Part shown: one piece after another, positions 1 through 19,957 of the stretch | Numbering within the stretch: position 1 is the stretch's first letter | Layout of the letters: every line of letters starts with the position of its first letter | Assembly: GCA_016783745.1 (NCBI GenBank) | Contig: JADHVZ010000019.1 | Location: 1 to 37,335 of the forward strand | Source of the DNA: Candidatus Omnitrophota bacterium | GTDB lineage: Bacteria > Omnitrophota > Gorgyraeia > JAHIPI01 | Reading direction: 5' to 3' | DNA length: 37,335 nucleotides | Position numbers and translations under genes: made by a program | The notes under the pieces: generated by a model | Database searches by the model: none | What the model saw: the letters and a program-made list of their open reading frames with translations, nothing else | What the model was told of the DNA's origin: nothing

Positions 1-330
1 GCGCTGGCAAAGGCACGTTCTGAAGGATTCGCACCCTCATCTGCCCTCACCTTCTTCGAAACGGATCATATCATAGATTCTGAAGGTAAAGCCCACCTTG
101 CCGGAGACTGTAAGCAAAACAGCATGATATCCCTTAAGCGCGGAATCAAAGCAAAACTCGATGCCCTGAACGCCCAGATCTCCAGATCCGGTGACATCCT
201 ACTCCAAGTCCTCTTAGAGCATGAGCTCAGGCATGAAGCAACCGGCCAAACCGGCGAAGAATCTGAAAAACAATTTATGCAACTCGATGCCAAAAGACTT
301 GTCGAGTTGGCTATTGGTAATGGCATTATG
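1..330 (+). other. HExxH metallopeptidase-like module, copy 1 (inside giant gene)
   Basis: Contains FFETDHI, HLAGDCKQN and then HELRHE encoded at 220-237, a zincin-type HExxH motif. It is homologous to the module at 3966-4500 (FFEADHI, HLAGDCKQN, HELRHE at 4369-4386) and more distantly to the C-terminal module with HELGHE at 13102-13119. Copy 1 is cut by the window edge. Metal binding and proteolysis are inferences from the motif only; the third ligand was not identified with certainty. Confidence 0.6.
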
Positions 331-3300
331 TATCCTTTCAGTCTGTCTACTGTATTAAGCAGAGAGAAACTGATAGCGGATGAATTTAAAGACGCTATTG
401 CCCTGGAGGCAATTGGATTTGAATTACGTGTTGAAAGAGACAGCGTTACGGAATTAGTAAACGGATATAACGAAAATAATGATATTGAGAAAGTCTATGA
501 TTACGACGGTACCGTATGGCAGGATTATGAGTATGATGAGATTACCAATGAATTAAAATTCGTAACATTGTTTAATCCTGTAATGGGCGAAAATATAAGA
601 GTACGCCTTATAGATTACAATTATGAAGATAATTATGAAGAATGGGAGATCCTTGTGGATGCTGCGGAAGTGGGCGATTTTGTCAAAAGAGGGACTTTCT
701 TTGTCCGCTTTATATCTCCGCGTAACATAAATTTCAACTATATAGAAGTGGATCCCGGTCACGATGATCAGGGTATAGCAAAAACCGTTTTGAGATGGTT
801 GGCCCTTAGTTCTCATAGAAGCGGGGGAGATAACGCTTTATTATCCATGGAGCAGAACTATAACCCGAAAACGGCTCATATCTCAAGCACTCTCTATGAT
901 TATGACCAGTTGATCCTTACGACAGGCGGCTGGTTCGGAACGCAAGGTGCCACGGCAATAGAAGGCGCGGATGAATCAAATATCGATAGGATCTTACTTG
1001 AGACAAAATTCTACTTCAGGCATGGCTCCGAAGAAATAACCATAGAAGTCGTAAATGCGGACACGCGGGAAATATCCGTGACAATTACCGATCTAGTAAC
1101 CCATGCGACAATTGCGGAGGGGCTGTCAGACATCCCATATGGCTATAAGTTTTCTATCGAAAATATGCGCTTAATAGTGCGAAATGACCAGGACGAAATT
1201 ATCGATCTTAGATATCCATTATCTTCCTCTTTTTACTGGAAGGGCCGGCCGGATGCGGCAAGAATCGCCCGCGACCAAAAGGCAGATTTGCAGAAATTTC
1301 TCAGCGGACTGATAGAGATAAGTTACAACGACGGTCTTATTACAGAAGTGATCGACCGTATTAACGGGCAGGAAAAAAATACGTCGGTTACCTATAGCGG
1401 CGAAGACAGCGCCACCATCACGTTCTCCGATGGAACAAGCGTCACCTATACGATAAATAAGACGCCCGACCCGGAACACGGCATAACGCTTCCGGATAGA
1501 AAAGATGAGATAAATAACTCCATTACATATCTTGCGAATCTTAAGAATCAAGCGCTTTTCAAGGACGGGCTCGATACGTTGAATATAGAGCCCATATATC
1601 AGGATATGCTGCTTAACATTACAGAGCTGTTCGGCATGATGTCGCGGTATGTATCGCCGGAAAATCCCTTCTCGCCGCACAACGCAAGAACGGCGCTTGT
1701 CAATAATCAACGGGTCGCGGAGAATACGGCGCGGTATCTAAAGGCCAAGCTTTTCGATAAGGCATCATCCGGCGCCCTGGCTGAATTAAGACAGGAGATC
1801 GCTGGTTCGATACTTGAGGACCAGGAAATACTTCTGAGGCTGCTTGATGCTATAGAAGCGGTTATTTCTACTAACGCTTATTCAGTGCTTAAAGCTCAAG
1901 ATATACCGCTATCACTTACTTTTGACGGCGCGGCTCTCACCGGCAATGAGCTCGTGAGGGAGATTGAGTTTATTTATGAACCGGCGGCCGGATTTATCGT
2001 CACCAATCTGGTCGGCGATCCTGAAACGGATATATATACAAAAGGGGGCATGAGGAACAAGGAAGCTTCCACGCTCAATGAAGAATTCAAAATCTGGCAG
2101 AATAGCTATAAAGAGATATATGACTTGGCTTACGCGATGTTACCCAAGAATCTGCTCTCCGGCATAGCGTATGAAGGCGCTAAGAGCCTTATAAAGATCT
2201 CGCCGCAAGCCGAGAAAACTGAACTTCTCTCGTCCTGGGCAAAATCAGCAGTCGATGCGGGGCTTATCGCAAAATACGTAGGCGGGCCTGATATGGCCAT
2301 GTATGCGGAGGATATGCAGTTAATAGCGGATACTATAGCCGCGCGATATAAGGAGCATTTGATTAATGAATTAAATATATTGAACGGCGTAGTCTCCCTC
2401 CGGCAGATCGCGGAGGGCCAAGATAGTGTCGCGTATTATAATGCAGCCCTTTCAGGGCGGGAAGCCGCCATGGGTGTACGTTTCTTAAGCGATGAGCTTA
2501 TGAGCCTTATCCGTGAGCATGCCCTGCGGGCCATAAAAGACGGCGCCATCGATTTAAGCTCTATCGCCATACCGGATGAGCTCGATGTGATCATCACAAA
2601 GATATTAGGCGCCTGCGTTACGGGAGGGGAGGAGGACAGAGGAGCCTTCCCGCATACAAAATTGGCAGTTACGGGACACGGCACGGCAAAGTCGGTTGAG
2701 ATGGCGGCGGAATATCTCGGAATGACGCCTTCAGAGACCAGAATAATCGTTTCGGGCGCAGGCGATGGTGGAGGCTCTGTGGCGCTAAAGCTTGCAAGGC
2801 GCGGCTATAAGATTGTAGGAATAAGCGACATAAATGGTATGGTACATAATCCGGACGGATTTACAATCGAGGAGCTGCAGAGACTGAACAACAAACCCGT
2901 AAAAGAAAGAAATGTGTTAAATGACCTTACCGGCACCGAGACTTCAACTAATCCAGATGACCTCTTCTCGCTCAATGCCGACATCCTCGTTCCCGCAGCT
3001 ACTGCCTATAGCATAAATGATGAAGTAATATCTAAGCTTAAGGTAAAGGCAATAGTAGAACTCGCAAATAACTCATTTCTTGGATATGAGAACCTGCTTT
3101 ACGAAAGAGGTATCCTTGTCCTTCCCGGAGCAACAGTAAACTTCGGCGGAGTCTATACCTCTTACAATGAGGATATGAACAAGCATTTATATAGCATCTC
3201 AGAGCTAAGGGATCTGGTGATCAACGCCGAGGGAGGGATAAGCTTAAGTACAGGCATGGATACAAATTATATCGAGACGGTTCCCATAGCAGGCAAAGGC

Positions 3301-6300
3301 AGCGTAACGGCAGTAGACGGCCTCATCAACACATCGGATATACAGGAGCTCCCCGTAGGGACATATATAGATGTCATAGAAGGAAAGGTCTATACCATGG
3401 CCGAATATATAGGAGATGTCGGAGCTGGCTATACCCAGACTATCCCCGTAGATCATGACGGGATCACAAGGCAGGTCATAATAACAGACGGCGCCATAAC
3501 CTTCTCTGAGATACCGGAATTATCTGTGGGGCTGAGCGCCACAGTTTATGACAGGATCGATGACCTTAAGACACGGCTCTACGCAGAAATCGATGAGACG
3601 GCCGTCAAGCTTAATGGCATAATATTGGCACTGCACGATAAGAATAAAAATTCAACCTTAATTGTCGAAAAGCTTAAGGAAGCTATAGCGGCCTTAAAGA
3701 ATGAGATATATCTCGACATAGAGGGTGCCTATTCCGCGAGAATCGATGAAATTGTGCAGGGTTATAGAGATAACGGCTATTTACTAACAGATACAATCGC
3801 AAGGCATAACGCCGCCATAAAAATTGCCTGGGAGGAAGAAATAACGATAAATCTCGAAATAAACTCAGACAATATAGATGATGACGTGACAATAGATCTA
3901 AAGACGGGAAGAATTCTAAATATTGGAAATGACGGCATCGGCACCACCCCCGCCTCATGGTCAGTGGATGAGGAGGGGAATCCCAGGGGATTAGATGAAG
4001 GCGTGTATTTGGATGAAAACAAACTCTCTCCTCAAAACCTCACCTCCAGCGTGACATTTGAAGCAGTGAAACAAGTAGAAGGCTATAATGTGCTCGTTGA
4101 GGCAAATTCTATATTCTCTGATGGTCAATACGGCGCAATCCTGCAGGCGGCACTGGCGCAGGCACGTTCTGAAGGATTCACAACCACATCACTCCTCAGC
4201 TTCTTCGAAGCAGACCACATCATAGGCTCAAACGGTAACGCCCACCTTGCCGGTGACTGTAAACAGAACGGCCTTATAGCCCTAAAGCACGGCCTCAAAG
4301 CAAAATTAGATATCCTAAACGCCCAGATCCCCGGAGCAGGAGACATCCTCCTCCAAGTCCTTATAGAGCATGAGCTGAGGCATGAAAGAGACGGAGAGGC
4401 CCTTGAAGAGATAATAACCAAGAATGATATTAAGAGACTTGTAGAGCTCTCACTTGAGAAAGGCCTTAATCCTACTACAGTAATGGATACTCTCTTCACT
4501 AATGGCCTTGCCGAAAACCCTGCCGGCAACCCCGCCAGCATCACATTCAGTGACGGCTCTATTGTGACGATTCGTTATAATGAGGATGGCGAGGATGTCA
4601 CGCGCCTCGATGTAGATTTCATAAATGGCGAGACGACTGAACTTCCGGGCAATGGCGAGTTTACCCAAACTCTCGCTAACGGCCATACCGTCCATTTTAC
4701 CCAAACAGCAGCAGGCTACGAATTATCCATCAACGATGGAGATAATACGAAAATATATAAGTTTAGGCCGGATGGTACAAAAGTAGATGCGCCGGCAGAC
4801 GGAGCCTCGATTACTTTTGAGGGCCTTATGGAATGGGCGAGGGGGTTTGTCACCAGTTTTAGCGAGAGGCATGGGGTTACCTTCCGTGAAGAGCCGTTCG
4901 GAACCGCTTTTTATGTCTTTGAGTCGAAAGATGTTGGCGAGGTCCTTAAGCTTTCAAGGGATACTGCCACGCCCGAGCTTTTCAGCAAACTCTTCGTTGA
5001 GCCTTATAAGCTGGTTACGGAGAGATTGAGCGGCCGTTTTGCTGATGTCAAGGCGGTTCGCATAACATCTGACGGGAGATTAGAAGAATGTGCAGTAGAA
5101 GACGCGCACGGGTATGTTCAGGAAGGACTTAAGCCGCTGGATGAGGAGATTCGTGAGCTTCTTGCAGATGGAAGCAGTGTCGCCGTTCAGAGAGCTAAGG
5201 ATCTTATCAATGAGACCATCTCCCTTTATGGTGAAATAATAAGTAAGGGAGTTATTGATATAGATATTAATCAGTTATTCCTGAGGCATTTTGGAATCGA
5301 TAAAGAGGGCAGGGTGAAGCTTATGGATTTAAGCCATCTGCAGGATACGCTTAACCTGCAGAACCATCAGATGCACCTGGCAAATTCGAATACGAAGCTT
5401 CACAGCCAGTTGTCAGGGTGGGCCGTATCGTGCGGGGCAGCGGGACAAGAGCTCTATAGTGAGTTCTTCATTCATCCAACCGACCCATCCACCGGCGGCC
5501 TCATGACAAGAATCAACCTCGCTGAGCTCTTGCCTGACGCAGAGCAGGCGTCCGAGCGCGCGGTTCCAATGCAGGACTGGACGCCGAAGCTGGTTTCGAT
5601 GGGGGGATTCAAGCCTGCTGCTCTGGGTAATAATGAGAGGCTCACCGGGAGCGACTATATGGCTGCGGTAAATGAGAGAAATCTCGCGGTAGCGGAAGAC
5701 GAGATATTAAAGTCTAATCTCAGAAGCTATGGAGAGGCCGTTGTATTAAAATATGACGAATTGGTGGAGGCGGGAGTGAATATCCGTTTCTTCAGAGGAT
5801 TGAAGACCCTTGCTTTTAGAGATACGGAGACGAATACGGTATGGTTAAACGAGGCGCTTGTGCTGGAGAATCAGGCAGATGCTCCGCCTGAGGAAATCGG
5901 GGCTCTGGAGGTGGTCCTCGAGGCGCTCCTTACGCATGAATCGGTGCACAATTCCACGACAGGGACCCTCTTCGAAGAATGGTCTGAAGAGATTGAAGCG
6001 GTAGCGGCCGAATGCGGAGTATATTCACGAGCTGCAGCTGATAATTATTACATAGTGGATAGCATAAGTGACTTTCTCGATAAAAAGTTTGGTATAAATA
6101 ATATCGCGGATGATGAGCTCCTCTTTATGGCCGGAACCAGGCCACCCATGATGAGAATTGTGAAGTTTGTGACTAAGTATTACAGTAAATATGGAATTTA
6201 TAACAATGGTATCCTCCATCCGGCCTTCATAGGAAGCGACATTACGCAGTGCGACATTGTGAACCCGAATCACGAACGTGACAAGACGGGTCTTTACTTT

Positions 6301-9300
6301 GCCGCAGGTGCCGATCTTTCGAATGCCATTCTTTCGATGGATGCCGACAACTTGATATTTGCGGGAAAGGATGTGGTGAACGCTGAGACATTGGGCATAG
6401 TCAAGAATACCATGTGGGAGACGATAGAGTCCTCTCCGGGCGCTGCAAAATATATGAGCAATAAGTACAAAGAAGGCTTTGCGTATGCGCAAGATTTTAG
6501 AGATATGGGCGTTGAGAAGGCGCTCATTTTAGAATTGAAGGAGGTGGGGGTTTTAAAAGAGGATGTTGAGGATCCTATAGAAGTGGATGATAAGGGCGAG
6601 CCTATAACATCGGCAGAATACGAGGGGAACAGATATGCGCAGATAAGTTTCTGGTGGAAATATCCCGGTGGAACGGTAAAGCGAAGGTACACTGTAACCT
6701 TTGATAAAGAAGATGATCTTACAAATACGCAAGCTTATAGCAGTCTATTGAATAACGTACTGGATGGCGGAATCGACTATTTTTACCAGCGTGCAGCCGA
6801 AGATATGCCGATGAAATATATGCAATATATACCCAGGATATCACGTGCGATTAAGCAGGGGGGATACTCTATTACGGGTGATAAATACGGTGGAGTCGCG
6901 TATGATCGCGATATCGAAATGGCGCTATCTGCTTCCGGATCAAAATATACACGTGCCGATGAGACAGAATCTTCCGCTATGGCAAGATGGAATGGATACA
7001 TTGTCGAAACAAAGCCTGATCGCTACGGATGGCACATGAATATGCGCAAAAAATTATGGGATGGTTATGAGCTTAATGAAGGGGATACCGTCGAAGAGGG
7101 TCGTGACAGAGCATACGTGATTCGCCGCAATAGCGCGGGGAATATAAGGGAGATAAGGACGAAGGATGGCAACGTTATATTGTCTGCAACATACAGCGCT
7201 GACCCATCTGGCGCGATCAAGAGTATAACGGTGACAGACGCCTTACGTAACGCGGCAGAATATAGCGTTGATGCGCCTGCCGCGTTTACCATACCCCTGG
7301 CAGACGGCGGTGCGATATCTGTGGTGAAAGGGTATGATGCGGCGTATACGATCAGTGAAATAGTTGCAACCAGCGCTGTTCGGATTAGTAGATTTAACAA
7401 CGACGGAATGGCTATTGGAGAACGGGAAGAAATAATCCTTAATACTTATAGTGGGATATATGCAAATATGCCGGACTTTGAAATTCTTTCCGTAGAAGAA
7501 AAGTGGCAGCTCTTTTTGAAGATCCCACTTATAAAGCGGTTATGGAGCGTCTGTGATGCCTTTTTGCGGCACAGTATTGACATAGCGGTGAATACAATTC
7601 AATGGGTTATCATACATTACGGGTATTCACAAAAGAACCGGCTTAATAGTTTCTATAATGTTGTTATAGAGAAGTACATTCCGAAAGATGGAAGTAGATT
7701 TGTGATAGGTGAATGGGGTGTTAGCTCAGCTATTACGAGTGTTGACTTTGCAAGGTTGCTTGAATCGAGGGGGATAAATGGAAATATAGTTGCCTCGGAT
7801 ATCATAAGAACGCTAAGGCTTGTGCAGGTCGGAACTAATGCCGCGCTTTTTGACAATCAGGGAAGTATAGATACGCTTTTAATGGACGGACGGTTATACC
7901 GCAATGGTCCACAGCTCCATTCTTCCGAAGCCGACATTTTACGCCAGGCATATGACAGAGGAGAATATATAGAATTTACAAGGACGGTGCCGGAGGCGGA
8001 AGCATACGCTTCTGAACATCCGGAGCAGTTCATACTCAAGGATGCCGATGCCCTGGATCCGCGCATTGAAAAAAACACTTATGATGTATCAATTTCGATG
8101 GATCTTGGGATGTACCTTGATAAGGACGAAAAATATAGACTTATAAAGAACCTGGGAAGATCAGTTAAAGAAGGCGGATATGTGATAGTAGGAGAGGAAA
8201 AAACCGGCATTACCAAATATGGGGTATGGCAGAGAGCAGGCAGCAGACTTGTTAGAGTCGATTATGAGGAGCCTGGCGCAACTTATCTTATCGATTTAGA
8301 TCCCGAGCTATTTATGCATATTGATCTTGCCGGCCTTGCCGAAGACCCTGCCGGCAACCCCGCCAGCACCACCTTTGACGACGGCTCGATCGCGACGATA
8401 CACTACGCTGACGGTGAGCCGTCAAAGCTCGACATCGCCTTTATAAATGAGCAGACTACATCACTGCCAGAGTTCACAGGCACCATGAATAATAGCCGCG
8501 AAGTCAGCTTCAAGCAGACGCAGTATGGCTATGAGCTGGCCATAACCGAAGGCGAACAGAGGAAAATATACGTATTCGCCGGTGACGGCACAAGGGTTAA
8601 AGTAATCGATAACTACACACCTGAGCTTGAATGGGCGCGCCAGCACCGCGAAGAGGTAATAAAGGCGACACTCGGAAATCCCGCCAACTGGGCCGATCCC
8701 AGCATCGAAAACGGCAAGGGCTGGACGTGGACGGATTTACGTAGGGACAGTTCTATCGATGCCTATAAGTGCGAATACAGACGTGAAGATAACGGCCCTA
8801 TTGTATATACAAAGTATGTCAAAATTCCTGTTGAAGGGACACCGCCTAATATATCTGAAGTTTTTGATAGGTTTGGGAACCGCTTTGCGAATACAACTGT
8901 AGTTAGAAATCTAAGATATTACGACGCAGATGGAAAAGAACAGATTGCGCCAGTGGCGTATGTACAGGATGAAGTACAGCCTGTATACAATTTGCTCGAT
9001 ACTTTATCAGAATCCGCTGATCCGACAGATGAACAAAGAGCCAGAGATATTATAGATGATTACTTAAACATGCTTCAAGAGATGTGGGAGGTCGGCCTCA
9101 GCATACCCTCACACCAGCTTACATTAGTTAATGTCGGCGTTGACACTGATGACAAGGTCTATTATTTTGATTTAGAAAGATTTGATACAGAGCTTCCATT
9201 TGATTTAGAAGATTACTTTCATTACCTTATTGCAAACAATTCTGGTTGGCTGCCTAGGAAATTTAGGACTTACTTCAAGGAGCGATTTACCTCCAGATTC

Positions 9301-12300
9301 ACACCTGAGAAACTGAGAGGTTGGTTTGAAAGTCCAAAACCCGGCACCCCGATTCAACCTTCATGTGATGATGTGCTTGAAGAACGCGTCCGCAGACAAA
9401 TGGCTATAGGCGATCTCACCGCTTCAGGCACACCCGAGGCAGCCCAGGCGCTCCTCGACTTTATCGAGCAGGAGACCGACACTGCACTTATCAAAACTGC
9501 AGCAGAGGCTTTACACTCAATCGGCATATCATCCAGGACCGGGATACCGTTTGAGGATGGGATATTGACGATTACGCGTGACCAGATGGATAAGGTGACA
9601 TCATCGGTTGATGGCGCGGGAAGGACCGGTTTGAATGAATATACTTTAGGAAACGGTATTGCCCTCTTCACAGAAGACGCAACACCCTGGGAAATCGCAG
9701 AGGGCTTGACGCATGGGTGTAACAGAACCGTGATGACAGGTGATTGGGATGAAGATTCTCAGAAATTCACAGGCGAGACGGCAGCCCTGTTAGACGCTAC
9801 TATATACATGCCGGAGATTACTTATTATGAAGATCTTAAAGATCTATTCAATATCCCCGAAGCTTGCGTTACGGCAAACAACCCCGTGGAAAAGCAATAT
9901 GCCTATGTATTAGACGAAGCACTCGCAAAGTTATCCGTATACGAAGGCAAAAGAGCCCTCGGCATGGCGGCAGGACACATAGAAGGAGTAGGACAGTATG
10001 GCCTGTCATCGGAAGAAGCCTCAAAACTCGGAGAGCTGGAATTGATATTCAAACTTACTTATAATGAAAGAACAAACGTCTACACCTCAACCATCCCGAG
10101 CTTCAACGCATTGAGAGCAAAAATAGACCAGGTCAAAGAGCTCCACGTCACCCCCGACGTCCTCGCGGCAATTGCGAACGGGTACGGGAGAAGATCTTTT
10201 GGCGAGCTTTATGATGTAGCACAAGGGTTTATTAGGGAGCTTGGGGAGAGAGACGGCTTAAGTTTCGAAGAAGAAGAAGGTACTTCTTACATTGTCTGGG
10301 GTTCTCCCGGGTTTGGTGAAGTCCTTAAGATATTCAGGGGCATCTCTTCAGCCGAAGAGACCGAAAAGCATCTCGTAAAACCTTATAAACTAGTTAGAAA
10401 TCAATTAGACGGTCTTTTTGCGGATGTGAAAGCGATACGCTTCACCCCTGACGGGAAAATTGAAGAATGCAGCATCGAGAATGCGGAAGGTTATGTATCT
10501 GAAGAGCTTTCGCGGCTGGATAAAAGATTGGATGAACTTCTTTATCTTTATGATATGGCAGGAGCTGAAGCTATTGAAGCAATAAAGGACTTAATTGAAG
10601 ACGCAATATCTCAATATGCCGAGATTATAAAGAAAGGCGTTATTGACACGGATGGTGTTCGATTATTCCTGACTCACTTCGGAGTTAAAGAAGACGGTAA
10701 AGTGAAATTTCTGGACCTCAGCCATTTAAGATCAACCGCTGACATGGATATTTTAGAGTGCCAGCAGTATTTGGAACGGTCCAATCAATTACTTTATGAT
10801 TCTCTTAATGAACGAAGAGGAGCATATGCTGAAGATGCGGCAGACGAGATATTCAACTATTTCTTCCCGGATGCGGATGACCCATCCACCGGCGGCCTCA
10901 TGACAAGAATTAACCTCGCTGAGCTCTTGCCTGACGCAGAGCAGGCGTCCGAGCGCGCGGTTCCAATGCAGGACTGGACGCCGAAGCTGGTTTCGATGGG
11001 GGGAGATGGGGAAGAAGGGGAATACAGCATTCATCATAATGATGCGGGGAACATTGAGGAAATAAGGCTTAGGGACAGCGGCGAATTGCTCTTGCAGGCG
11101 CATTACGGCGATGACCCGGCCGGTGCGATACAAAGCATTACCGTAACCGAAGCCTTACAGCAGGCCGCGGATTACACAGTTAACCAGCCCGCCGCGTTTG
11201 CCATACCCCTTGCTGACGGCGGTGCGATTTCTATTGTGAAGAACTACGACGCGGCGTATACGATCAGTGAAATAGTTGCAACCAGCGCTGTTCGGATCAG
11301 TAGATTTAACAACGACGGAATGGCTATCGGAGAACGGGAAGAAATAATTCTTGATAGTTATGATAGCATATACGCAAATATGCCGGACTTTGAAATTCTT
11401 TCCGTAGAAGAAAAGTGGCAGCTCTTTTTAAAGATCCCGCTTATAAAAGAGTTATGGAGCGCCTGTGATGCCTTTTTGCAACACAGTATTGACATAGCGG
11501 TGAATACAATTCAATGGGTTATCATACATTACGGGTATTCACAAAAGAACCGGCTTAATAGTTTCTATAATGTTGTTATAGAGAAGTACATTCCGAAAGA
11601 TGGAAGTAAATTTGTGATAAGTGAATGGGGCGTTAGCTCATCTATTACGAGTGTTGACTTTGCAAGGCTGCTTGAAGCAAGGGGGATGAACGGGAGTATA
11701 GTTGCGTCGGATATCATAAGAACGCTACGGCTTGTGCGGGTCGGTGCCAATGCCGCGCTTTTTGATCATAAGGGAAATATAGATACGCTTCTAATGGATG
11801 GACAATTATATTGGTATGGCCCACAGCTTATTTCGCCCGAAGCTGATATTTTACGCCAGGCTTATGGCAGAGGAGAATACGCGGAATTTACAAGAATGGT
11901 GCCTGAGGCCGAGGCATACGCTTCCGCGAATCCGGATAAGTTTATACTTAAAGATGCCGATGCCCTCGATCCGCGCATCGAGAAAAACACTTATGACGTA
12001 TCAATTTCGATGAACCTTGCGCAGTACCTTGATAAGCACGAAAAATATGAACTTATAAAAAACTTAGGAAGATCAGTTAAAGAGGGTGGATATGTAATAA
12101 TAGGAGAGGAAAAAACCGGCATTATCAAATATGGGGTATGGCAGAGAGCAGGCAGCAGACTTGTTAGAGTCGATTATGAGGAGGCTGGCGCAACTTATCT
12201 TATCGATTTAGATCCCGAGCTATTTATGCATATTGATCTTGCCGGTTTGGTCGAAGACTCTGACGGCAACCCCGCCAGCACCACTTTTAGTGACGGCTCG

Positions 12301-13308
12301 ATCGCGACGATACACTACGCAGACGGTGAGCCGTCAGAGCTTGACATTACCTTTATAAATGAGCAGACTACATCACTGCAAGAGTTCACAGGCACCATGA
12401 ATAATAGCCGCGATGTCAGCTTCAAACAGACACAGTACGGCTATGAACTGGCGATAACCGAAGGCGAACAGAGGAAAATATACGTATTTGGCCAGGATGG
12501 TATTAAAGTCGACACCGCCCCCGCCTCATGGTCGAGGACGGGTGTGGAACTTGATCCTGTGCTGGAGGCGGCTGCAGAGGCGGATGCCACTATAAGTGAT
12601 ACCAATGTAGCGGCACTTACCGGTGATACGCTCGAAAGCCGCATAACTAACCTTGCCGAGCTGCAAGCTGACGCGGAAGCACTCCTTGTAGGTGTTCCAG
12701 ATACACAGAGCACGTTATCACTAAATATAAAGACACAGGACGGCTCAGAAAAAGCTACGGCCTTCTATATACTGCGGGATTTTGGTGTGGAGAACAGAAC
12801 CTTTCTCATACCGGCTGAGCTTGTCTCTTCGCAGGACTTTATGTTTGCCCTCTTCTTTTCCCTCACAAGCGGAAATTATGGAAGCCTGCCTGAGGGAAAA
12901 CCCTACATTTTCATGCCTGTTGATCATATACTTAGTAAAGACTCAGATGGTAATGTCTATGACCACATGCTGGGAGATTGCACCGGTAACGGAGTCGTGC
13001 TTGTAAACAAGGCCTATCAGGAAGCAGTAACCACACTCAACGATCACCCAAATCTATTGGGCCAACTCGCCGGAAGGCTCTACCTGCAAGTCCTCATAGA
13101 GCATGAGCTTGGGCATGAGACAGATGCATTGAACGGCGACGCCGCGGAAGAGTTCCTTGTGGGCCTCGATGTGGAGTTCTTTATTGATCTGGCCCTGGCG
13201 AATAACATAGACCCCGTAGAATTCACGAATATCCTTTCAGAGATCCCCTTGATCTCAGATGAATTTAAAAGCATGGTCAACGCGCGGTTATTCTCGCCAG
13301 TTAATTAG
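1..13308 (+). CDS. Giant modular protein, 5'-truncated by window edge
   Basis: The reading frame is open from base 1 (the codons before the first ATG at 124 translate into sequence homologous to an internal repeat), so the true start lies outside the window. About 4,435 codons are visible, ending in TAA at 13306-13308. Modules in order: HELRH metallopeptidase-like (1-330); GNAT-like patch (about 640-900, motif DDQGIA); glutamate-dehydrogenase-like (1990-3220); PASWS linker (3949); second HELRH module (3966-4500); beta module (4510-4788); kinase-like (4800-5420); repeated linker (5482-5607); HESVH module (5608-6060); Rossmann/methyltransferase-like region (6100-7000); duplicated block B1 (7135-8577); divergent kinase-like region (8620-9350); unknown helical region (9355-10190); kinase-like (10195-10840); repeated linker (10879-11004); duplicated block B2 (11044-12489); PASWS linker; HELGH module (12700-13305). 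No signal peptide or membrane segment can be judged without the N-terminus. Giant ORFs are known from Omnitrophota; function, localisation and processing are unknown. Frame integrity over 13 kb argues for a real gene. Confidence 0.9.
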   Translation, partial: ALAKARSEGFAPSSALTFFETDHIIDSEGKAHLAGDCKQNSMISLKRGIKAKLDALNAQISRSGDILLQVLLEHELRHEATGQTGEESEKQFMQLDAKRLVELAIGNGIMYPFSLSTVLSREKLIADEFKDAIALEAIGFELRVERDSVTELVNGYNENNDIEKVYDYDGTVWQDYEYDEITNELKFVTLFNPVMGENIRVRLIDYNYEDNYEEWEILVDAAEVGDFVKRGTFFVRFISPRNINFNYIEVDPGHDDQGIAKTVLRWLALSSHRSGGDNALLSMEQNYNPKTAHISSTLYDYDQLILTTGGWFGTQGATAIEGADESNIDRILLETKFYFRHGSEEITIEVVNADTREISVTITDLVTHATIAEGLSDIPYGYKFSIENMRLIVRNDQDEIIDLRYPLSSSFYWKGRPDAARIARDQKADLQKFLSGLIEISYNDGLITEVIDRINGQEKNTSVTYSGEDSATITFSDGTSVTYTINKTPDPEHGITLPDRKDEINNSITYLANLKNQALFKDGLDTLNIEPIYQDMLLNITELFGMMSRYVSPENPFSPHNARTALVNNQRVAENTARYLKAKLFDKASSGALAELRQEIAGSILEDQEILLRLLDAIEAVISTNAYSVLKAQDIPLSLTFDGAALTGNELVREIEFIYEPAAGFIVTNLVGDPETDIYTKGGMRNKEASTLNEEFKIWQNSYKEIYDLAYAMLPKNLLSGIAYEGAKSLIKISPQAEKTELLSSWAKSAVDAGLIAKYVGGPDMAMYAEDMQLIADTIAARYKEHLINELNILNGVVSLRQIAEGQDSVAYYNAALSGREAAMGVRFLSDELMSLIREHALRAIKDGAIDLSSIAIPDELDVIITKILGACVTGGEEDRGAFPHTKLAVTGHGTAKSVEMAAEYLGMTPSETRIIVSGAGDGGGSVALKLARRGYKIVGISDINGMVHNPDGFTIEELQRLNNKPVKERNVLNDLTGTETSTNPDDLFSLNADILVPAATAYSINDEVISKLKVKAIVELANNSFLGYENLLYERGILVLPGATVNFGGVYTSYNEDMNKHLYSISELRDLVINAEGGISLSTGMDTNYIETVPIAGKGSVTAVDGLINTSDIQELPVGTYIDVIEGKVYTMAEYIGDVGAGYTQTIPVDHDGITRQVIITDGAITFSEIPELSVGLSATVYDRIDDLKTRLYAEIDETAVKLNGIILALHDKNKNSTLIVEKLKEAIAALKNEIYLDIEGAYSARIDEIVQGYRDNGYLLTDTIARHNAAIKIAWEEEITINLEINSDNIDDDVTIDLKTGRILNIGNDGIGTTPASWSVDEEGNPRGLDEGVYLDENKLSPQNLTSSVTFEAVKQVEGYNVLVEANSIFSDGQYGAILQAALAQARSEGFTTTSLLSFFEADHIIGSNGNAHLAGDCKQNGLIALKHGLKAKLDILNAQIPGAGDILLQVLIEHELRHERDGEALEEIITKNDIKRLVELSLEKGLNPTTVMDTLFTNGLAENPAGNPASITFSDGSIVTIRYNEDGEDVTRLDVDFINGETTELPGNGEFTQTLANGHTVHFTQTAAGYELSINDGDNTKIYKFRPDGTKVDAPADGASITFEGLMEWARGFVTSFSERHGVTFREEPFGTAFYVFESKDVGEVLKLSRDTATPELFSKLFVEPYKLVTERLSGRFADVKAVRITSDGRLEECAVEDAHGYVQEGLKPLDEEIRELLADGSSVAVQRAKDLINETISLYGEIISKGVIDIDINQLFLRHFGIDKEGRVKLMDLSHLQDTLNLQNHQMHLANSNTKLHSQLSGWAVSCGAAGQELYSEFFIHPTDPSTGGLMTRINLAELLPDAEQASERAVPMQDWTPKLVSMGGFKPAALGNNERLTGSDYMAAVNERNLAVAEDEILKSNLRSYGEAVVLKYDELVEAGVNIRFFRGLKTLAFRDTETNTVWLNEALVLENQADAPPEEIGALEVVLEALLTHESVHNSTTGTLFEEWSEEIEAVAAECGVYSRAAADNYYIVDSISDFLDKKFGINNIADDELLFMAGTRPPMMRIVKFVTKYYSKYGIYNNGILHPAFIGSDITQCDIVNPNHERDKTGLYFAAGADLSNAILSMDADNLIFAGKDVVNAETLGIVKNTMWETIESSPGAAKYMSNKYKEGFAYAQDFRDMGVEKALILELKEVGVLKEDVEDPIEVDDKGEPITSAEYEGNRYAQISFWWKYPGGTVKRRYTVTFDKEDDLTNTQAYSSLLNNVLDGGIDYFYQRAAEDMPMKYMQYIPRISRAIKQGGYSITGDKYGGVAYDRDIEMALSASGSKYTRADETESSAMARWNGYIVETKPDRYGWHMNMRKKLWDGYELNEGDTVEEGRDRAYVIRRNSAGNIREIRTKDGNVILSATYSADPSGAIKSITVTDALRNAAEYSVDAPAAFTIPLADGGAISVVKGYDAAYTISEIVATSAVRISRFNNDGMAIGEREEIILNTYSGIYANMPDFEILSVEEKWQLFLKIPLIKRLWSVCDAFLRHSIDIAVNTIQWVIIHYGYSQKNRLNSFYNVVIEKYIPKDGSRFVIGEWGVSSAITSVDFARLLESRGINGNIVASDIIRTLRLVQVGTNAALFDNQGSIDTLLMDGRLYRNGPQLHSSEADILRQAYDRGEYIEFTRTVPEAEAYASEHPEQFILKDADALDPRIEKNTYDVSISMDLGMYLDKDEKYRLIKNLGRSVKEGGYVIVGEEKTGITKYGVWQRAGSRLVRVDYEEPGATYLIDLDPELFMHIDLAGLAEDPAGNPASTTFDDGSIATIHYADGEPSKLDIAFINEQTTSLPEFTGTMNNSREVSFKQTQYGYELAITEGEQRKIYVFAGDGTRVKVIDNYTPELEWARQHREEVIKATLGNPANWADPSIENGKGWTWTDLRRDSSIDAYKCEYRREDNGPIVYTKYVKIPVEGTPPNISEVFDRFGNRFANTTVVRNLRYYDADGKEQIAPVAYVQDEVQPVYNLLDTLSESADPTDEQRARDIIDDYLNMLQEMWEVGLSIPSHQLTLVNVGVDTDDKVYYFDLERFDTELPFDLEDYFHYLIANNSGWLPRKFRTYFKERFTSRFTPEKLRGWFESPKPGTPIQPSCDDVLEERVRRQMAIGDLTASGTPEAAQALLDFIEQETDTALIKTAAEALHSIGISSRTGIPFEDGILTITRDQMDKVTSSVDGAGRTGLNEYTLGNGIALFTEDATPWEIAEGLTHGCNRTVMTGDWDEDSQKFTGETAALLDATIYMPEITYYEDLKDLFNIPEACVTANNPVEKQYAYVLDEALAKLSVYEGKRALGMAAGHIEGVGQYGLSSEEASKLGELELIFKLTYNERTNVYTSTIPSFNALRAKIDQVKELHVTPDVLAAIANGYGRRSFGELYDVAQGFIRELGERDGLSFEEEEGTSYIVWGSPGFGEVLKIFRGISSAEETEKHLVKPYKLVRNQLDGLFADVKAIRFTPDGKIEECSIENAEGYVSEELSRLDKRLDELLYLYDMAGAEAIEAIKDLIEDAISQYAEIIKKGVIDTDGVRLFLTHFGVKEDGKVKFLDLSHLRSTADMDILECQQYLERSNQLLYDSLNERRGAYAEDAADEIFNYFFPDADDPSTGGLMTRINLAELLPDAEQASERAVPMQDWTPKLVSMGGDGEEGEYSIHHNDAGNIEEIRLRDSGELLLQAHYGDDPAGAIQSITVTEALQQAADYTVNQPAAFAIPLADGGAISIVKNYDAAYTISEIVATSAVRISRFNNDGMAIGEREEIILDSYDSIYANMPDFEILSVEEKWQLFLKIPLIKELWSACDAFLQHSIDIAVNTIQWVIIHYGYSQKNRLNSFYNVVIEKYIPKDGSKFVISEWGVSSSITSVDFARLLEARGMNGSIVASDIIRTLRLVRVGANAALFDHKGNIDTLLMDGQLYWYGPQLISPEADILRQAYGRGEYAEFTRMVPEAEAYASANPDKFILKDADALDPRIEKNTYDVSISMNLAQYLDKHEKYELIKNLGRSVKEGGYVIIGEEKTGIIKYGVWQRAGSRLVRVDYEEAGATYLIDLDPELFMHIDLAGLVEDSDGNPASTTFSDGSIATIHYADGEPSELDITFINEQTTSLQEFTGTMNNSRDVSFKQTQYGYELAITEGEQRKIYVFGQDGIKVDTAPASWSRTGVELDPVLEAAAEADATISDTNVAALTGDTLESRITNLAELQADAEALLVGVPDTQSTLSLNIKTQDGSEKATAFYILRDFGVENRTFLIPAELVSSQDFMFALFFSLTSGNYGSLPEGKPYIFMPVDHILSKDSDGNVYDHMLGDCTGNGVVLVNKAYQEAVTTLNDHPNLLGQLAGRLYLQVLIEHELGHETDALNGDAAEEFLVGLDVEFFIDLALANNIDPVEFTNILSEIPLISDEFKSMVNARLFSPVN
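1990..3220 (+). other. Glutamate/leucine/phenylalanine/valine dehydrogenase-like domain inside giant gene
   Basis: The C-terminal half (about 2660-3220) follows the ELFV-dehydrogenase dinucleotide-binding domain closely: TGHGTAKSVEMAAEYLG, a Rossmann glycine motif GAGDGGG (about 2755-2775), then SDINGMVHNPDGFTIEEL, DILVPAATAYSI, ELANNSFL, ERGILVLPGATVNFGGV. The N-terminal half (about 2038-2400) has recognisable remnants of the catalytic domain: KGGMRN, YEGAKSLI (position of the catalytic lysine of GGGKGG) and GGPDMAMYAEDM. The usual second active-site surroundings are altered, so activity is uncertain. A complete metabolic-enzyme fold embedded in a giant protein is unusual. Confidence 0.75.
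3966..4500 (+). other. HExxH metallopeptidase-like module, copy 2 (inside giant gene)
   Basis: Begins just after a PASWS linker (about 3949-3963) and contains SFFEADHI, HLAGDCKQN and HELRHE (4369-4386). It matches copy 1 almost motif for motif, which also proves that the reading frame before the first in-window ATG is coding. A beta module follows directly. Confidence 0.6.
4510..4788 (+). repeat. Beta-rich repeat module, copy 1 of 3 (inside giant gene)
   Basis: Encodes the pattern NPAS-TF-DGSI--I-Y--G, then FIN--TT-LP, then a GYEL-I-------YKF-DGTKV ending. Copies 2 and 3 lie at 8338-8601 and 12250-12513 and are much closer to each other than to this copy. A shorter relative (ATITFSDGTSVTYTI) occurs near 1411-1455. 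The short alternating hydrophobic strands suggest a small beta sandwich or hairpin domain used as spacer or binding element; this is inference. Confidence 0.6.
4800..5420 (+). other. Kinase-like module, copy 1 (inside giant gene)
   Basis: The module has a VAIK-like segment GEVLKLSRD (about 4936-4962) and a DFG-like segment with preceding turn, GRVKLMDLSHL (about 5308-5340), in the spacing expected for an aminoglycoside-phosphotransferase or protein-kinase fold. The HRD-type catalytic loop is not evident, so it may be a pseudokinase. Copy 2 at 10195-10800 keeps both segments (GEVLKIFRG, GKVKFLDLSHL). A third, very divergent relative may lie at 8620-9230 (YTKYVKIP, KVYYFDLERFD). Family assignment is an inference from motif order. 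Confidence 0.45.
5482..5607 (+). repeat. 126-base near-identical linker, copy 1
   Basis: Encodes DPSTGGLMTRINLAELLPD followed by a segment ending TPKLVSMGG. The second copy at 10879-11004 differs by a single base over 126 (aatcaac here, aattaac there), although the kinase-like modules just upstream of both copies have diverged strongly. This implies recent copying or gene conversion restricted to the linker. Confidence 0.9.
5608..6060 (+). other. HESVH zincin-like module (inside giant gene)
   Basis: HESVH is encoded at 5935-5949 and is followed by an acidic helix, EEWSEEIEA, which could supply the third zinc ligand as in gluzincin-type peptidases. The upstream strand NTVWLNEALVL resembles the edge-strand segment preceding the active-site helix in many zincins. 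The module is unrelated in sequence to the HELRH modules, so it is a separate putative peptidase site. Confidence 0.5.
7135..8577 (+). repeat. Large internal duplication, block B1
   Basis: Block B1 corresponds to block B2 at 11044-12489. From 7341 onward the two are collinear at a constant offset of 3912 bases with no indel; one 3-base indel lies further upstream. Bases 7570-7696 are identical to 11482-11608 (127 bases). The block encodes a beta-hairpin region (RRNSAGNIREI, LADGGAIS), a methyltransferase-like domain and a beta module. Confidence 0.9.
7630..8335 (+). other. SAM-methyltransferase-like module, copy 1 (inside giant gene)
   Basis: The order FVIGEWGVSSAITSVDFARLL (motif I region), IVASDI (acidic end of strand 2), YDVSISMDLGMYL (motif IV region) and LGRSVKEGGYVIVGEE (late beta strand) matches class I Rossmann methyltransferases. 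Motif I lacks the usual GxGxG, so SAM binding is not assured. The second copy is at 11542-12247. Confidence 0.5.
10195..10840 (+). other. Kinase-like module, copy 2 (inside giant gene)
   Basis: Homologous to the module at 4800-5420: GEVLKIFRG (about 10315-10341) and GKVKFLDLSHL (about 10696-10728) align with the VAIK-like and DFG-like segments, and ADVKAIRFTPDGKIEEC matches ADVKAVRITSDGRLEEC of copy 1. It is followed by the same 126-base linker as copy 1. A catalytic HRD loop is not evident. Confidence 0.45.
10879..11004 (+). repeat. 126-base near-identical linker, copy 2
   Basis: One mismatch to 5482-5607 over the whole length. Here the linker leads into block B2, whereas copy 1 leads into the HESVH module, so the linker marks a module-exchange junction. 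Confidence 0.9.
11044..12489 (+). repeat. Large internal duplication, block B2
   Basis: Duplicate of 7135-8577 (offset 3912 bases over most of its length; see block B1). It contains the second methyltransferase-like module (11542-12247) and third beta module (12250-12513), and ends shortly before the second PASWS linker at about 12520-12537. Confidence 0.9.
12700..13305 (+). other. HExxH metallopeptidase-like module, copy 3 (C-terminus of giant protein)
   Basis: Contains HELGHE at 13102-13119 preceded by LYLQVLIE, matching LLQVLIEHELRHE of the earlier copies, and upstream MLGDCTGNG matching LAGDCKQNG. The giant protein ends about 60 residues after the motif, so a putative peptidase module forms the C-terminus. 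Confidence 0.55.
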
Positions 13309-18547: not shown

Positions 18548-18655
18548 AATAAAATTTCATCTCTGACACTGTGAAACTCTGATACTCTGACACCCTGATG
18601 TCTTCGCCTGGTGACCTTGCAACCCATGTATTAAAAAATGAAAAAGGAGGTAGTT
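18548..18655 (+). other. Leader/intergenic segment before hcp with short direct repeats
   Basis: Contains the short reiterations CTCTGACAC (twice, near 18562 and 18585) and CTCTGATA between them. No convincing promoter was found, so hcp may be read from the cyclophilin promoter or from an unrecognised one. A strong Shine-Dalgarno AAAGGAGG ends about eight bases before the hcp ATG. Confidence 0.4.
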
Positions 18656-19957
18656 ATGTTTTGTTATCAGTGTGAACAAACGGCAGGCGGGGCCGGTTGC
18701 GTCAAGACAGGTGTATGCGGGAAAAATCCTGATATCCAGTCCCTGCAGGATATATTACTTTTCGGGCTTAAGGGGATTGCGGCATATGCCTATCACGCCA
18801 GAGAGTTAGGCGGGGTAGATCCCGAAGTGGATGCGTTTATGCATGAGGCGCTGTTTAAAACGGTCACCAACGTGAGCTTTGACCTGAAACAGCATATAGA
18901 TATGGTACTTAAATGCGGTGAAGTGAACCTGAAGACAATGGAACTTTTGGATAAGGCGCATGTGGAAAAATTCGGCGCTCCTGTCCCGACTGAAGTCGAA
19001 ACAGGAACAAAGGCCGGCCCCGGTATCCTTATAACCGGACATGACCTTCTTGATCTATATGAGCTACTGAAGCAGACTGAGGGAACAGGCGTTAATGTAT
19101 ATACGCACAGCGAGATGCTGCCCGCTCACGGCTATCCGAAGCTTAAAGGATTCAAGCATTTTGCGGGAAACTTCGGAGGGGCGTGGCAGGAGCAGAAAAA
19201 AGAGTGGAAGGAATTTTCAGGCGCTCTGCTGGTTACCACGAATTGCGTTATGACACCGCCACCTAATACATATTTAGACAGGTTGTTTACGGCCGGGATA
19301 TCGGGTGTTGAGGGAGCTACCCATATAAAGGATAGGGACTTCACAGCGGTAATAGAAAAAGCTAAGCAACTGCCTCCGCTGCCGGAAGCGCCGGGCAAGA
19401 AGATCATGACAGGATTTCACCACACAGCTATCCTTGGGCTGGCGGATAGGATCGTGCCTCTGGTCAAGCAGGGCAAGATCAAGCATTTCTTTCTGATCGG
19501 AGGATGCGACGGAGCAAGGCCGGGACGTAATTATTACACGGAATTTGCCGAAAATGTACCGAAAGACAGCGTTATTTTGACACTCGCCTGCGGTAAATAC
19601 AGATTCAATAAACTTGAATTCGGAGATATCGAAGGCATCCCAAGGCTTATCGATATAGGCCAGTGCAATAACGCCTATTCCGCTATACAGGTGGCTGTTG
19701 CCCTTTCAAAGGCTTTTAACTGCGGTGTGAACGAATTACCGCTATCGTTTGTCCTGTCGTGGTTTGAGCAAAAGGCAGTAGCTATATTGCTGACACTCTT
19801 TCATTTAGGTATCAAGGGTATCCGTCTTGGCCCGTCTTTACCCGCTTTTGTGACACCTAATGTGCTTAAGATATTACAGGATACATTTGACATACAGCCG
19901 ATTACGACACCGGATCAGGATTTGAAGGTTTTGCTGGGAGAGTCGGTCTCCGCTTGA
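18656..19957 (+). CDS. hcp: Hybrid cluster protein (hydroxylamine/NO reductase family), class III
   Basis: 433 residues. The N-terminal [4Fe-4S] cysteines are C-x2-C-x8-C-x5-C (MFCYQCEQTAGGAGCVKTGVCGK region). All hybrid-cluster ligands can be located in order: ITGHD (His), HSEMLPAHGYP (Glu), TTNCVMTPP (Cys), GGCDGARPGRNYY (persulfide Cys), LACGKYRFNK (Cys), DIGQCNNAYSA (Cys) and WFEQKA (Glu and Lys). The cysteine spacing and a length about 100 residues shorter than E. coli or Desulfovibrio Hcp fit class III, known from anaerobes and archaea. The protein reduces NO or hydroxylamine under anaerobic nitrosative stress. The start at 18656 follows the Shine-Dalgarno; the in-frame ATG at 18638 lies upstream of that site and is unlikely. 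The 3' end overlaps the convergent methyltransferase gene by 56 bases. Confidence 0.95.
   Translation: MFCYQCEQTAGGAGCVKTGVCGKNPDIQSLQDILLFGLKGIAAYAYHARELGGVDPEVDAFMHEALFKTVTNVSFDLKQHIDMVLKCGEVNLKTMELLDKAHVEKFGAPVPTEVETGTKAGPGILITGHDLLDLYELLKQTEGTGVNVYTHSEMLPAHGYPKLKGFKHFAGNFGGAWQEQKKEWKEFSGALLVTTNCVMTPPPNTYLDRLFTAGISGVEGATHIKDRDFTAVIEKAKQLPPLPEAPGKKIMTGFHHTAILGLADRIVPLVKQGKIKHFFLIGGCDGARPGRNYYTEFAENVPKDSVILTLACGKYRFNKLEFGDIEGIPRLIDIGQCNNAYSAIQVAVALSKAFNCGVNELPLSFVLSWFEQKAVAILLTLFHLGIKGIRLGPSLPAFVTPNVLKILQDTFDIQPITTPDQDLKVLLGESVSA

What the first reader, a model, noticed from the sequence alone, without database searches (positions are those of the whole stretch)
1..13308. Giant protein built from repeated peptidase-like, kinase-like and methyltransferase-like modules plus a GDH domain
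Seen directly: one frame over 13.3 kb with three related HELRH/HELGH modules, a separate HESVH module, two clear and one possible kinase-like modules, two methyltransferase-like modules, three beta modules and a GDH-like domain. Repeated enzyme-like modules rather than adhesin repeats are unusual for giant proteins. One possible reading is a polyprotein or a delivery system whose peptidase modules free effector modules; this is inference.
Basis: partly seen in the sequence, partly recalled or inferred. Interest (0 to 1): 0.88.

Follow-up and report, generated by a model that had tools for sequence, protein, structure and literature searches.

The report
Exported giant multi-enzyme protein of Omnitrophota
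The start of this window is the tail of a giant gene from a tiny uncultured bacterium (phylum Omnitrophota), coding for one huge, probably exported protein stitched together from metallopeptidase-like, kinase-like, methyltransferase-like and glutamate-dehydrogenase-like parts, of a kind already suspected of serving predatory or parasitic contact with other cells.

Summary
Bases 1-13308 are one open frame (4435 aa, cut by the contig end, 5' part missing) built from repeated enzyme-like modules. Relatives place it in Candidatus Omnitrophota, whose giant ORFs are already known. I confirm three HExxH modules (a zincin-like family without Pfam or PDB sequence match, HExxHE mostly conserved), a GDH domain keeping the aligned catalytic Lys and Asp, two full kinase-like modules plus a third without the catalytic Asp, and three (not two) methyltransferase-like modules. 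Correction: the HESVH module is HQxxH in both relatives found, so probably not an active peptidase. Module copies are under purifying selection (dN/dS 0.21-0.25 for the methyltransferase block). New here: in 384 phylum genomes the HExxH module never occurred in a frame below 1097 aa, and 11 of 12 relatives with an in-contig 5' frame end begin with an export signal; export is thus well supported for relatives and inferred for this gene, which is also cysteine-poor. Most likely an exported multi-enzyme protein acting on other cells; peptidase-driven release of modules is plausible but untested. A new variant of a known kind.

The parts
1..13308 (+). Giant open frame, 4435 aa, 5' end missing (contig end)
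1..411 (+). HExxH (zincin-like) module A, copy 1, N-terminal part cut off; HELRH at 220-234
424..1443 (+). Module B (function unknown), shared with giant frames of G001, G003, G044, G418
1918..3225 (+). Glutamate-dehydrogenase-like domain (dimerisation part about 2038-2337, NAD-binding part 2656-3180); aligned catalytic Lys and Asp kept
3934..4521 (+). HExxH module A, copy 2, preceded by the PASW border motif; HELRH at 4369-4383
4504..4800 (+). Beta module E, copy 1
4678..5607 (+). Kinase-like module, copy 1 (aa 1560-1869; its first part overlaps the end of the beta module in the self-comparison), ends with the MQDWTPKLVSMGG linker
5620..6030 (+). HESVH module; Glu is Gln in both relatives
6205..6882 (+). 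Module X: class I methyltransferase-like Rossmann domain, the most widespread module
7522..8295 (+). Methyltransferase-like module J, copy 1
8332..8604 (+). Beta module E, copy 2
8668..9249 (+). Third, divergent kinase-like module, catalytic-loop Asp not kept
9385..10176 (+). Module K (HEAT-like start, rest unknown), shared with G001, G003, G044
10063..11004 (+). Kinase-like module, copy 2 of the full type (aa 3355-3668; its first part overlaps the end of module K as delimited), same linker as copy 1
11434..12207 (+). Methyltransferase-like module J, copy 2
12244..12528 (+). Beta module E, copy 3
12514..13290 (+). HExxH module A, copy 3, with PASW border; HELGH at 13102-13116; C-terminal end of the protein

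Best explanation
This is the C-terminal 4435 residues of an exported giant multi-enzyme protein of an Omnitrophota bacterium. Shown: one continuous frame; a mosaic of duplicated modules shared with other Omnitrophota giants; constraint on the modules; export signals at the N-termini of relatives carrying the same modules. Inferred: this gene too starts with a Sec signal; the protein is placed on or outside the cell and used in contact with other cells (prey or host); NAD-, ATP- and SAM-dependent folds make most sense where those cofactors exist, i.e. in the cytoplasm of another cell; and the conserved HExxHE modules either trim the giant protein so that modules are freed, or attack target proteins. 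I rate export of this protein at about 0.85, a role in attack on or interaction with other cells at about 0.55, and self-cleavage by the HExxH modules at about 0.35.
For: Frame and modules. Same modules in giant frames of other Omnitrophota genomes, in different order; organism names. dN/dS 0.21-0.25 between methyltransferase-block copies and 0.25 between kinase-like copies. HExxH module: 29 of 384 phylum genomes, 41 matches, smallest frame 1097 aa, median 3797 aa; HExxHE plus a downstream Glu kept in most copies. AlphaFold gives it pLDDT mostly 80-92 with helix, beta sheet, then helices, HExxH on one of them and a further helix after it, in line with the description of zincin-like domains in PMC5512222. 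Export: 11 of 12 module-A frames with a 5' frame end inside the contig start with a Sec or lipoprotein signal (exception G122); six X or J relatives likewise; a complete GDH relative, G051:C15. Kinase and X folds: Foldseek to PRPK/Bud32 (E 2e-3) and NNMT/Dot1 methyltransferases (E about 1e-2). GDH catalytic Lys and Asp aligned in the window and in four giant relatives. Cys 0.36% against 1.28% in 12 neighbouring genes, p 1.4e-6. Literature: giant ORFs common in Omnitrophota, one whose peptides rise threefold in attached cells (PMC10066038); gigantic Omnitrophota proteins with peptidases and methylases proposed as predatory (PMC12419801).
Against: The 5' end of this gene is missing, so its own signal peptide is not seen, and no second contig with the missing part was found. 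Foldseek E-values are weak and the second AlphaFold model failed for most of its length. Export signals were judged by hydropathy and by eye, not with a trained predictor. No prey, expression or cleavage data exist for this organism. Exported enzymes needing NAD, ATP or SAM would be inert outside a cell unless delivered, and no delivery mechanism was identified. No transmembrane helix in this part.
Confidence: 0.55

Rival explanations
1. Self-processing polyprotein: the HExxHE modules cut between modules (possibly near the PASW or DW-P-LV-MG borders) so that separate GDH, kinase-like and methyltransferase-like pieces act on their own. (A more specific form of the best explanation, not exclusive of it.)
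For: Three HExxHE copies split the protein into blocks; conserved border motifs precede each module A with known upstream sequence in G000, G001 and G044 and end both full kinase-like modules; processing by zincins is proposed for polyvalent proteins (PMC5512222).
Against: No cleavage site shown; border motifs are found only in close relatives and may be part of the fold; peptidase modules may instead act on foreign proteins.
Confidence: 0.3
2. Exported enzymes serving nutrition or the organism's own envelope, with no attack on other cells: peptidases digest extracellular protein and GDH uses released glutamate.
For: Export signals in relatives; GDH catalytic residues kept.
Against: NAD, ATP and SAM are not normally available outside cells (general knowledge); kinase-like and methyltransferase-like modules have no evident role in nutrient digestion.
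Confidence: 0.15
3. Cytoplasmic mega-enzyme or scaffold, where fused enzymes act on internal substrates.
For: All recognised folds are typical of cytoplasmic enzymes and this part has no transmembrane helix.
Against: Complete relatives of several modules carry export signals; cysteine depletion; no conserved domain order.
Confidence: 0.08
4. Degenerate fusion: a non-functional frame grown by loss of stop codons and by duplication.
For: HESVH module lacks its Glu in relatives, third kinase-like copy lacks its Asp, some distant module A copies are degenerate.
Against: dN/dS 0.21-0.25 between copies of the methyltransferase block and the kinase-like modules; GDH and HExxHE residues kept across genera.
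Confidence: 0.06
5. A polyvalent protein of a phage or conjugative element.
For: Same theme of several zincins with unrelated enzyme domains in one polypeptide (PMC5512222).
Against: No match in 50,697 phage and 72,556 plasmid records, none for module A in viral contigs, no informative PHROGs match, housekeeping neighbours, export signals in relatives.
Confidence: 0.03
6. Assembly chimera.
For: The frame ends exactly at a contig end, as in several relatives.
Against: Same module combinations in independent assemblies; uniform composition. Repeats explain why contigs break there.
Confidence: 0.02

Closest known systems
Giant ORFs of Omnitrophota (Seymour et al. 2023, PMC10066038; Ca. Velamenicoccus archaeovorus 39,678 aa; West-Roberts et al. 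preprint 2023 as cited in PMC12057145)
   Same: Same phylum, very long single frames, mosaic and poorly conserved, relatives exported, several relatives with transmembrane helices
   Different: Described domains are mostly adhesion, polysaccharide or cell wall related; the part seen here is a soluble array of peptidase-like, GDH, kinase-like and methyltransferase-like modules with no transmembrane helix
Gigantic Omnitrophota proteins with lipocone domains (PMC12419801)
   Same: Combine peptidases of the zincin type and diverse methylases in one giant polypeptide; predatory role proposed
   Different: No lipocone domain was recognised here (not specifically searched); GDH and this HExxH family are not named in the passages read
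Polyvalent proteins (Iyer et al. 2017, PMC5512222)
   Same: One to several zincins interspersed with unrelated enzyme domains; processing proposed
   Different: Phage and plasmid encoded; here chromosomal-looking, with exported relatives
Glutamate dehydrogenase (PF00208/PF02812)
   Same: NAD-binding and dimerisation parts with the aligned catalytic Lys and Asp
   Different: Embedded in a giant, probably exported protein with a long insertion (about aa 780-885); scores far below NCBIfam equivalog cut-offs
M48-like gluzincins (resemblance recalled, not tested)
   Same: HExxH followed by a Glu and then a helix with D and a 'GxNP'-like end
   Different: No Pfam or PDB sequence match; different spacing

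Membership tests
Omnitrophota giant ORFs | Genome belongs to Omnitrophota | tested here: met
   Nearest module relatives G001 and G044 are named Candidatus Omnitrophota and are in the same family/class as the window's genome
Omnitrophota giant ORFs | Open frame longer than 20 kb (threshold used in PMC10066038) | tested here: inconclusive
   13.3 kb seen, cut by contig end
Omnitrophota giant ORFs | Exported or membrane-associated protein | tested here: inconclusive
   Own N-terminus missing; signals in complete relatives
Polyvalent proteins | Zincin-like peptidases with unrelated enzyme domains in one polypeptide | tested here: met
Polyvalent proteins | Encoded by phages or conjugative elements | tested here: not met
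Glutamate dehydrogenase | Dimerisation and NAD-binding domains detected above or near curated cut-off | tested here: met
   PF00208 111.5 bits (cut-off 23.4); PF02812 22.5 bits, just below its 25.3
Glutamate dehydrogenase | Catalytic Lys and Asp | tested here: met
   YEGAKS and GGPDM aligned to GGGKGG and PAPDV of stand-alone GDHs
Glutamate dehydrogenase | Enzyme activity | not testable with these tools
   needs assay
Zincin metallopeptidase (module A) | HExxH with downstream Glu conserved in homologues | tested here: met
   a few degenerate copies (L113, L115)
Zincin metallopeptidase (module A) | Sequence or fold match to a solved zincin | tested here: inconclusive
   no sequence-profile match; not among the 50 best Foldseek matches, which the other domains of the same model dominate
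Zincin metallopeptidase (HESVH module) | Catalytic Glu conserved | tested here: not met
   HQTKH and HQAHH in relatives
Protein kinase-like fold | Fold match | tested here: met
   PRPK/Bud32, E 2e-3, probability 1.00; also divergent kinase 6m7z
Protein kinase-like fold | Lys, catalytic-loop Asp and Asn, DFG-type Asp | tested here: inconclusive
   Lys and last Asp kept, catalytic loop atypical, Asp lost in third copy
Class I methyltransferase | Pfam or fold match | tested here: met
   J copies by Pfam, X by Foldseek only (weak Pfam hits in 4 of 19 relatives)

The most novel reading that the evidence does not exclude
A self-processing exported polyprotein: a giant Sec-exported chain whose own family of zincin modules cuts it into separate enzymes (GDH, kinase-like, methyltransferase-like) that are delivered into and rewire another microbe's cytoplasm.
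Probability: 0.2. Interest if true: 0.9.

Novelty: new variant of a known kind. Interest (0 to 1): 0.55.

Why it matters
The roles of giant ORFs in Omnitrophota are described as poorly understood (PMC10066038). Here one such protein has recognisable enzyme parts with conserved active-site residues, and a small, widespread HExxHE module that is found only inside large proteins with export signals. That gives short, expressible pieces (GDH about 440 aa, HExxHE module about 190 aa) with which the question of what these proteins do, and whether they cut themselves, becomes testable.

Tried and rejected
DNA overlap of the contig end with another contig of the genome: none. Missing 5' part sought with an N-terminal domain of another giant and with G044's protein: no extension found. 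A mosaic alignment with fragment flanks misaligned and was replaced. Second AlphaFold model (aa 3129-4200) was poor except module K, and its Foldseek search returned nothing. Profile searches of modules A, X, kinase and K against PDB sequences gave no believable match; the PPR hits for the kinase profile are repeat artefacts. The 70,450 aa frame in G230 was not accepted at face value: 72 kb of it are masked N, leaving about 46,430 aa. Mobile-element origin rejected.

Full report
Observation. Bases 1-13308 form one frame of 4435 residues with no stop, open at the 5' end because the window begins at base 1 of contig C2 of a 1.66 Mb genome in 54 contigs. Composition over the frame is even. I add a third methyltransferase-like module, X, at aa 2069-2294.

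Origin. The nearest module relatives are named Candidatus Omnitrophota, and those genomes are in the same family and class as the window's genome. Giant ORFs are common in this phylum (PMC10066038; PMC12057145).

A mosaic family. In a set of 59 genomes eight match, the window's own included, and in 384 of the class 37 match. The modules recur in different order in long frames of G001 (4010 aa), G003 (2941), G044 (5709), G017 (4389) and others. Many of these frames are cut at contig ends; I infer that repeats break the assemblies there. A frame of 70,450 aa in G230 contains 72 kb of masked N and is credible only for about 46,430 aa.

The HExxH module A. It has no Pfam or PDB sequence match. In the phylum it is found in 29 of 384 genomes with 41 matches, never in a frame under 1097 aa (median 3797). 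Its core HExxHE and a Glu some residues further on are kept in most copies; some copies are degenerate. AlphaFold models it with pLDDT mostly 80-92, as a helix, a beta sheet and further helices with the HExxH on one of them, in line with the zincin-like domains described in PMC5512222. Its end resembles M48 peptidases to my eye; that is a lead, not a test. Each module A with known upstream sequence in G000, G001 and G044 is preceded by a (P/S)ASW motif.

The HESVH module. Only two relatives were found, with HQTKH and HQAHH. The Glu needed for a zincin is thus not conserved, and this module should not be counted as a peptidase on present evidence.

GDH. PF00208 is found at E 6.7e-32 and PF02812 at 1e-4; the aligned catalytic Lys and Asp are present. 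GDH-like domains also lie in large frames of G010, G017, G049 and G051. In G051:C15 the 1731 aa frame is complete and begins with a signal-like sequence; the frame upstream of it looks to my eye like the large subunit of glutamate synthase.

Kinase-like and methyltransferase-like modules. Foldseek puts the kinase-like module nearest PRPK/Bud32 (E 2e-3) and X nearest NNMT and Dot1 methyltransferases (E about 1e-2); no match passed 0.001. The kinase catalytic loop is atypical and its Asp is lost in the third copy.

Constraint. Between the duplicated methyltransferase blocks dN/dS is 0.21-0.25, between the kinase-like copies 0.25, between two HExxH copies 0.47. The frame is not drifting freely.

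Export. Of 12 module-A frames whose 5' end lies inside the contig, 11 begin with a Sec-type or lipoprotein signal (two of them, L126 and L127, are nearly the same protein; nine pass a hydropathy threshold and two, L131 and L133, were judged by eye). The exception is G122, whose start cannot be placed. Six frames with modules X or J also start with signals. This protein has 0.36% Cys against 1.28% in 12 neighbouring genes (p 1.4e-6), and pI 4.6. Its own N-terminus is missing, so export of this protein is an inference.

Mechanism. Exported proteins with NAD-, ATP- and SAM-dependent folds are best explained as acting inside another cell; a predatory or parasitic life is proposed for the group (PMC10066038, PMC12419801). 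In Ca. Velamenicoccus peptides of the giant protein rose threefold in attached cells (PMC10066038), and transfer of material into prey is suggested (PMC13153191). Whether module A frees other modules or attacks foreign proteins is open.

Surroundings. Downstream genes are mostly housekeeping: an AAA/DUF4143 protein, TPR, Dus, cyclophilin, prismane, haem synthesis and glycerol metabolism. Nothing phage- or plasmid-like matches.

Verdict. A real, well-conserved modular giant protein, a new variant of the known Omnitrophota giants; the delivery idea is reasonable, the self-cleaving idea untested.

Noticed in passing
G230:C2:80001-219298 (loci L054-L060): Frame of about 46,430 aa after a 72 kb masked stretch, with two X modules and dozens of hydrophobic segments; G026:C1 (single-contig genome) has a 45,379 aa frame with a weak X-like match.
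   Followed up: partly
L100 (G051:C15:31165-40960): A complete 1731 aa protein with GDH domain and signal-like N-terminus overlaps the end of a frame that looks like glutamate synthase large subunit.
   Followed up: partly
N-termini in L130, L131, L133, L134, L135, L087, L088: Many giants share an N-terminal domain after the signal sequence with a motif like IHIQDAH...LEGGSG; unidentified.
   Followed up: no
L140 (G000:C31:23951-24340): A 186 aa piece related to G044's giant with an internal TAA; possibly a decayed remnant of a second giant gene in the window's own genome.
   Followed up: no
window 5515-5607 and 10912-11004: The linker NLAELLPDAEQASERAVPMQDWTPKLVSMGG is identical in protein in two places; the 56 codons there have low dS (0.20) compared with 1.58 over the whole module pair, which suggests recent gene conversion.
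   Followed up: partly
L080 (G039:C17:5353-6768): A kinase-like module in a frame of only 472 aa bounded by stops, an exception to the large-frame pattern; may be a fragment.
   Followed up: no
window 18638-19957: Prismane/CO dehydrogenase family gene (439 aa) downstream of Dus and cyclophilin genes; its Pfam match starts only at model position 162, so it may be a shortened form.
   Followed up: no
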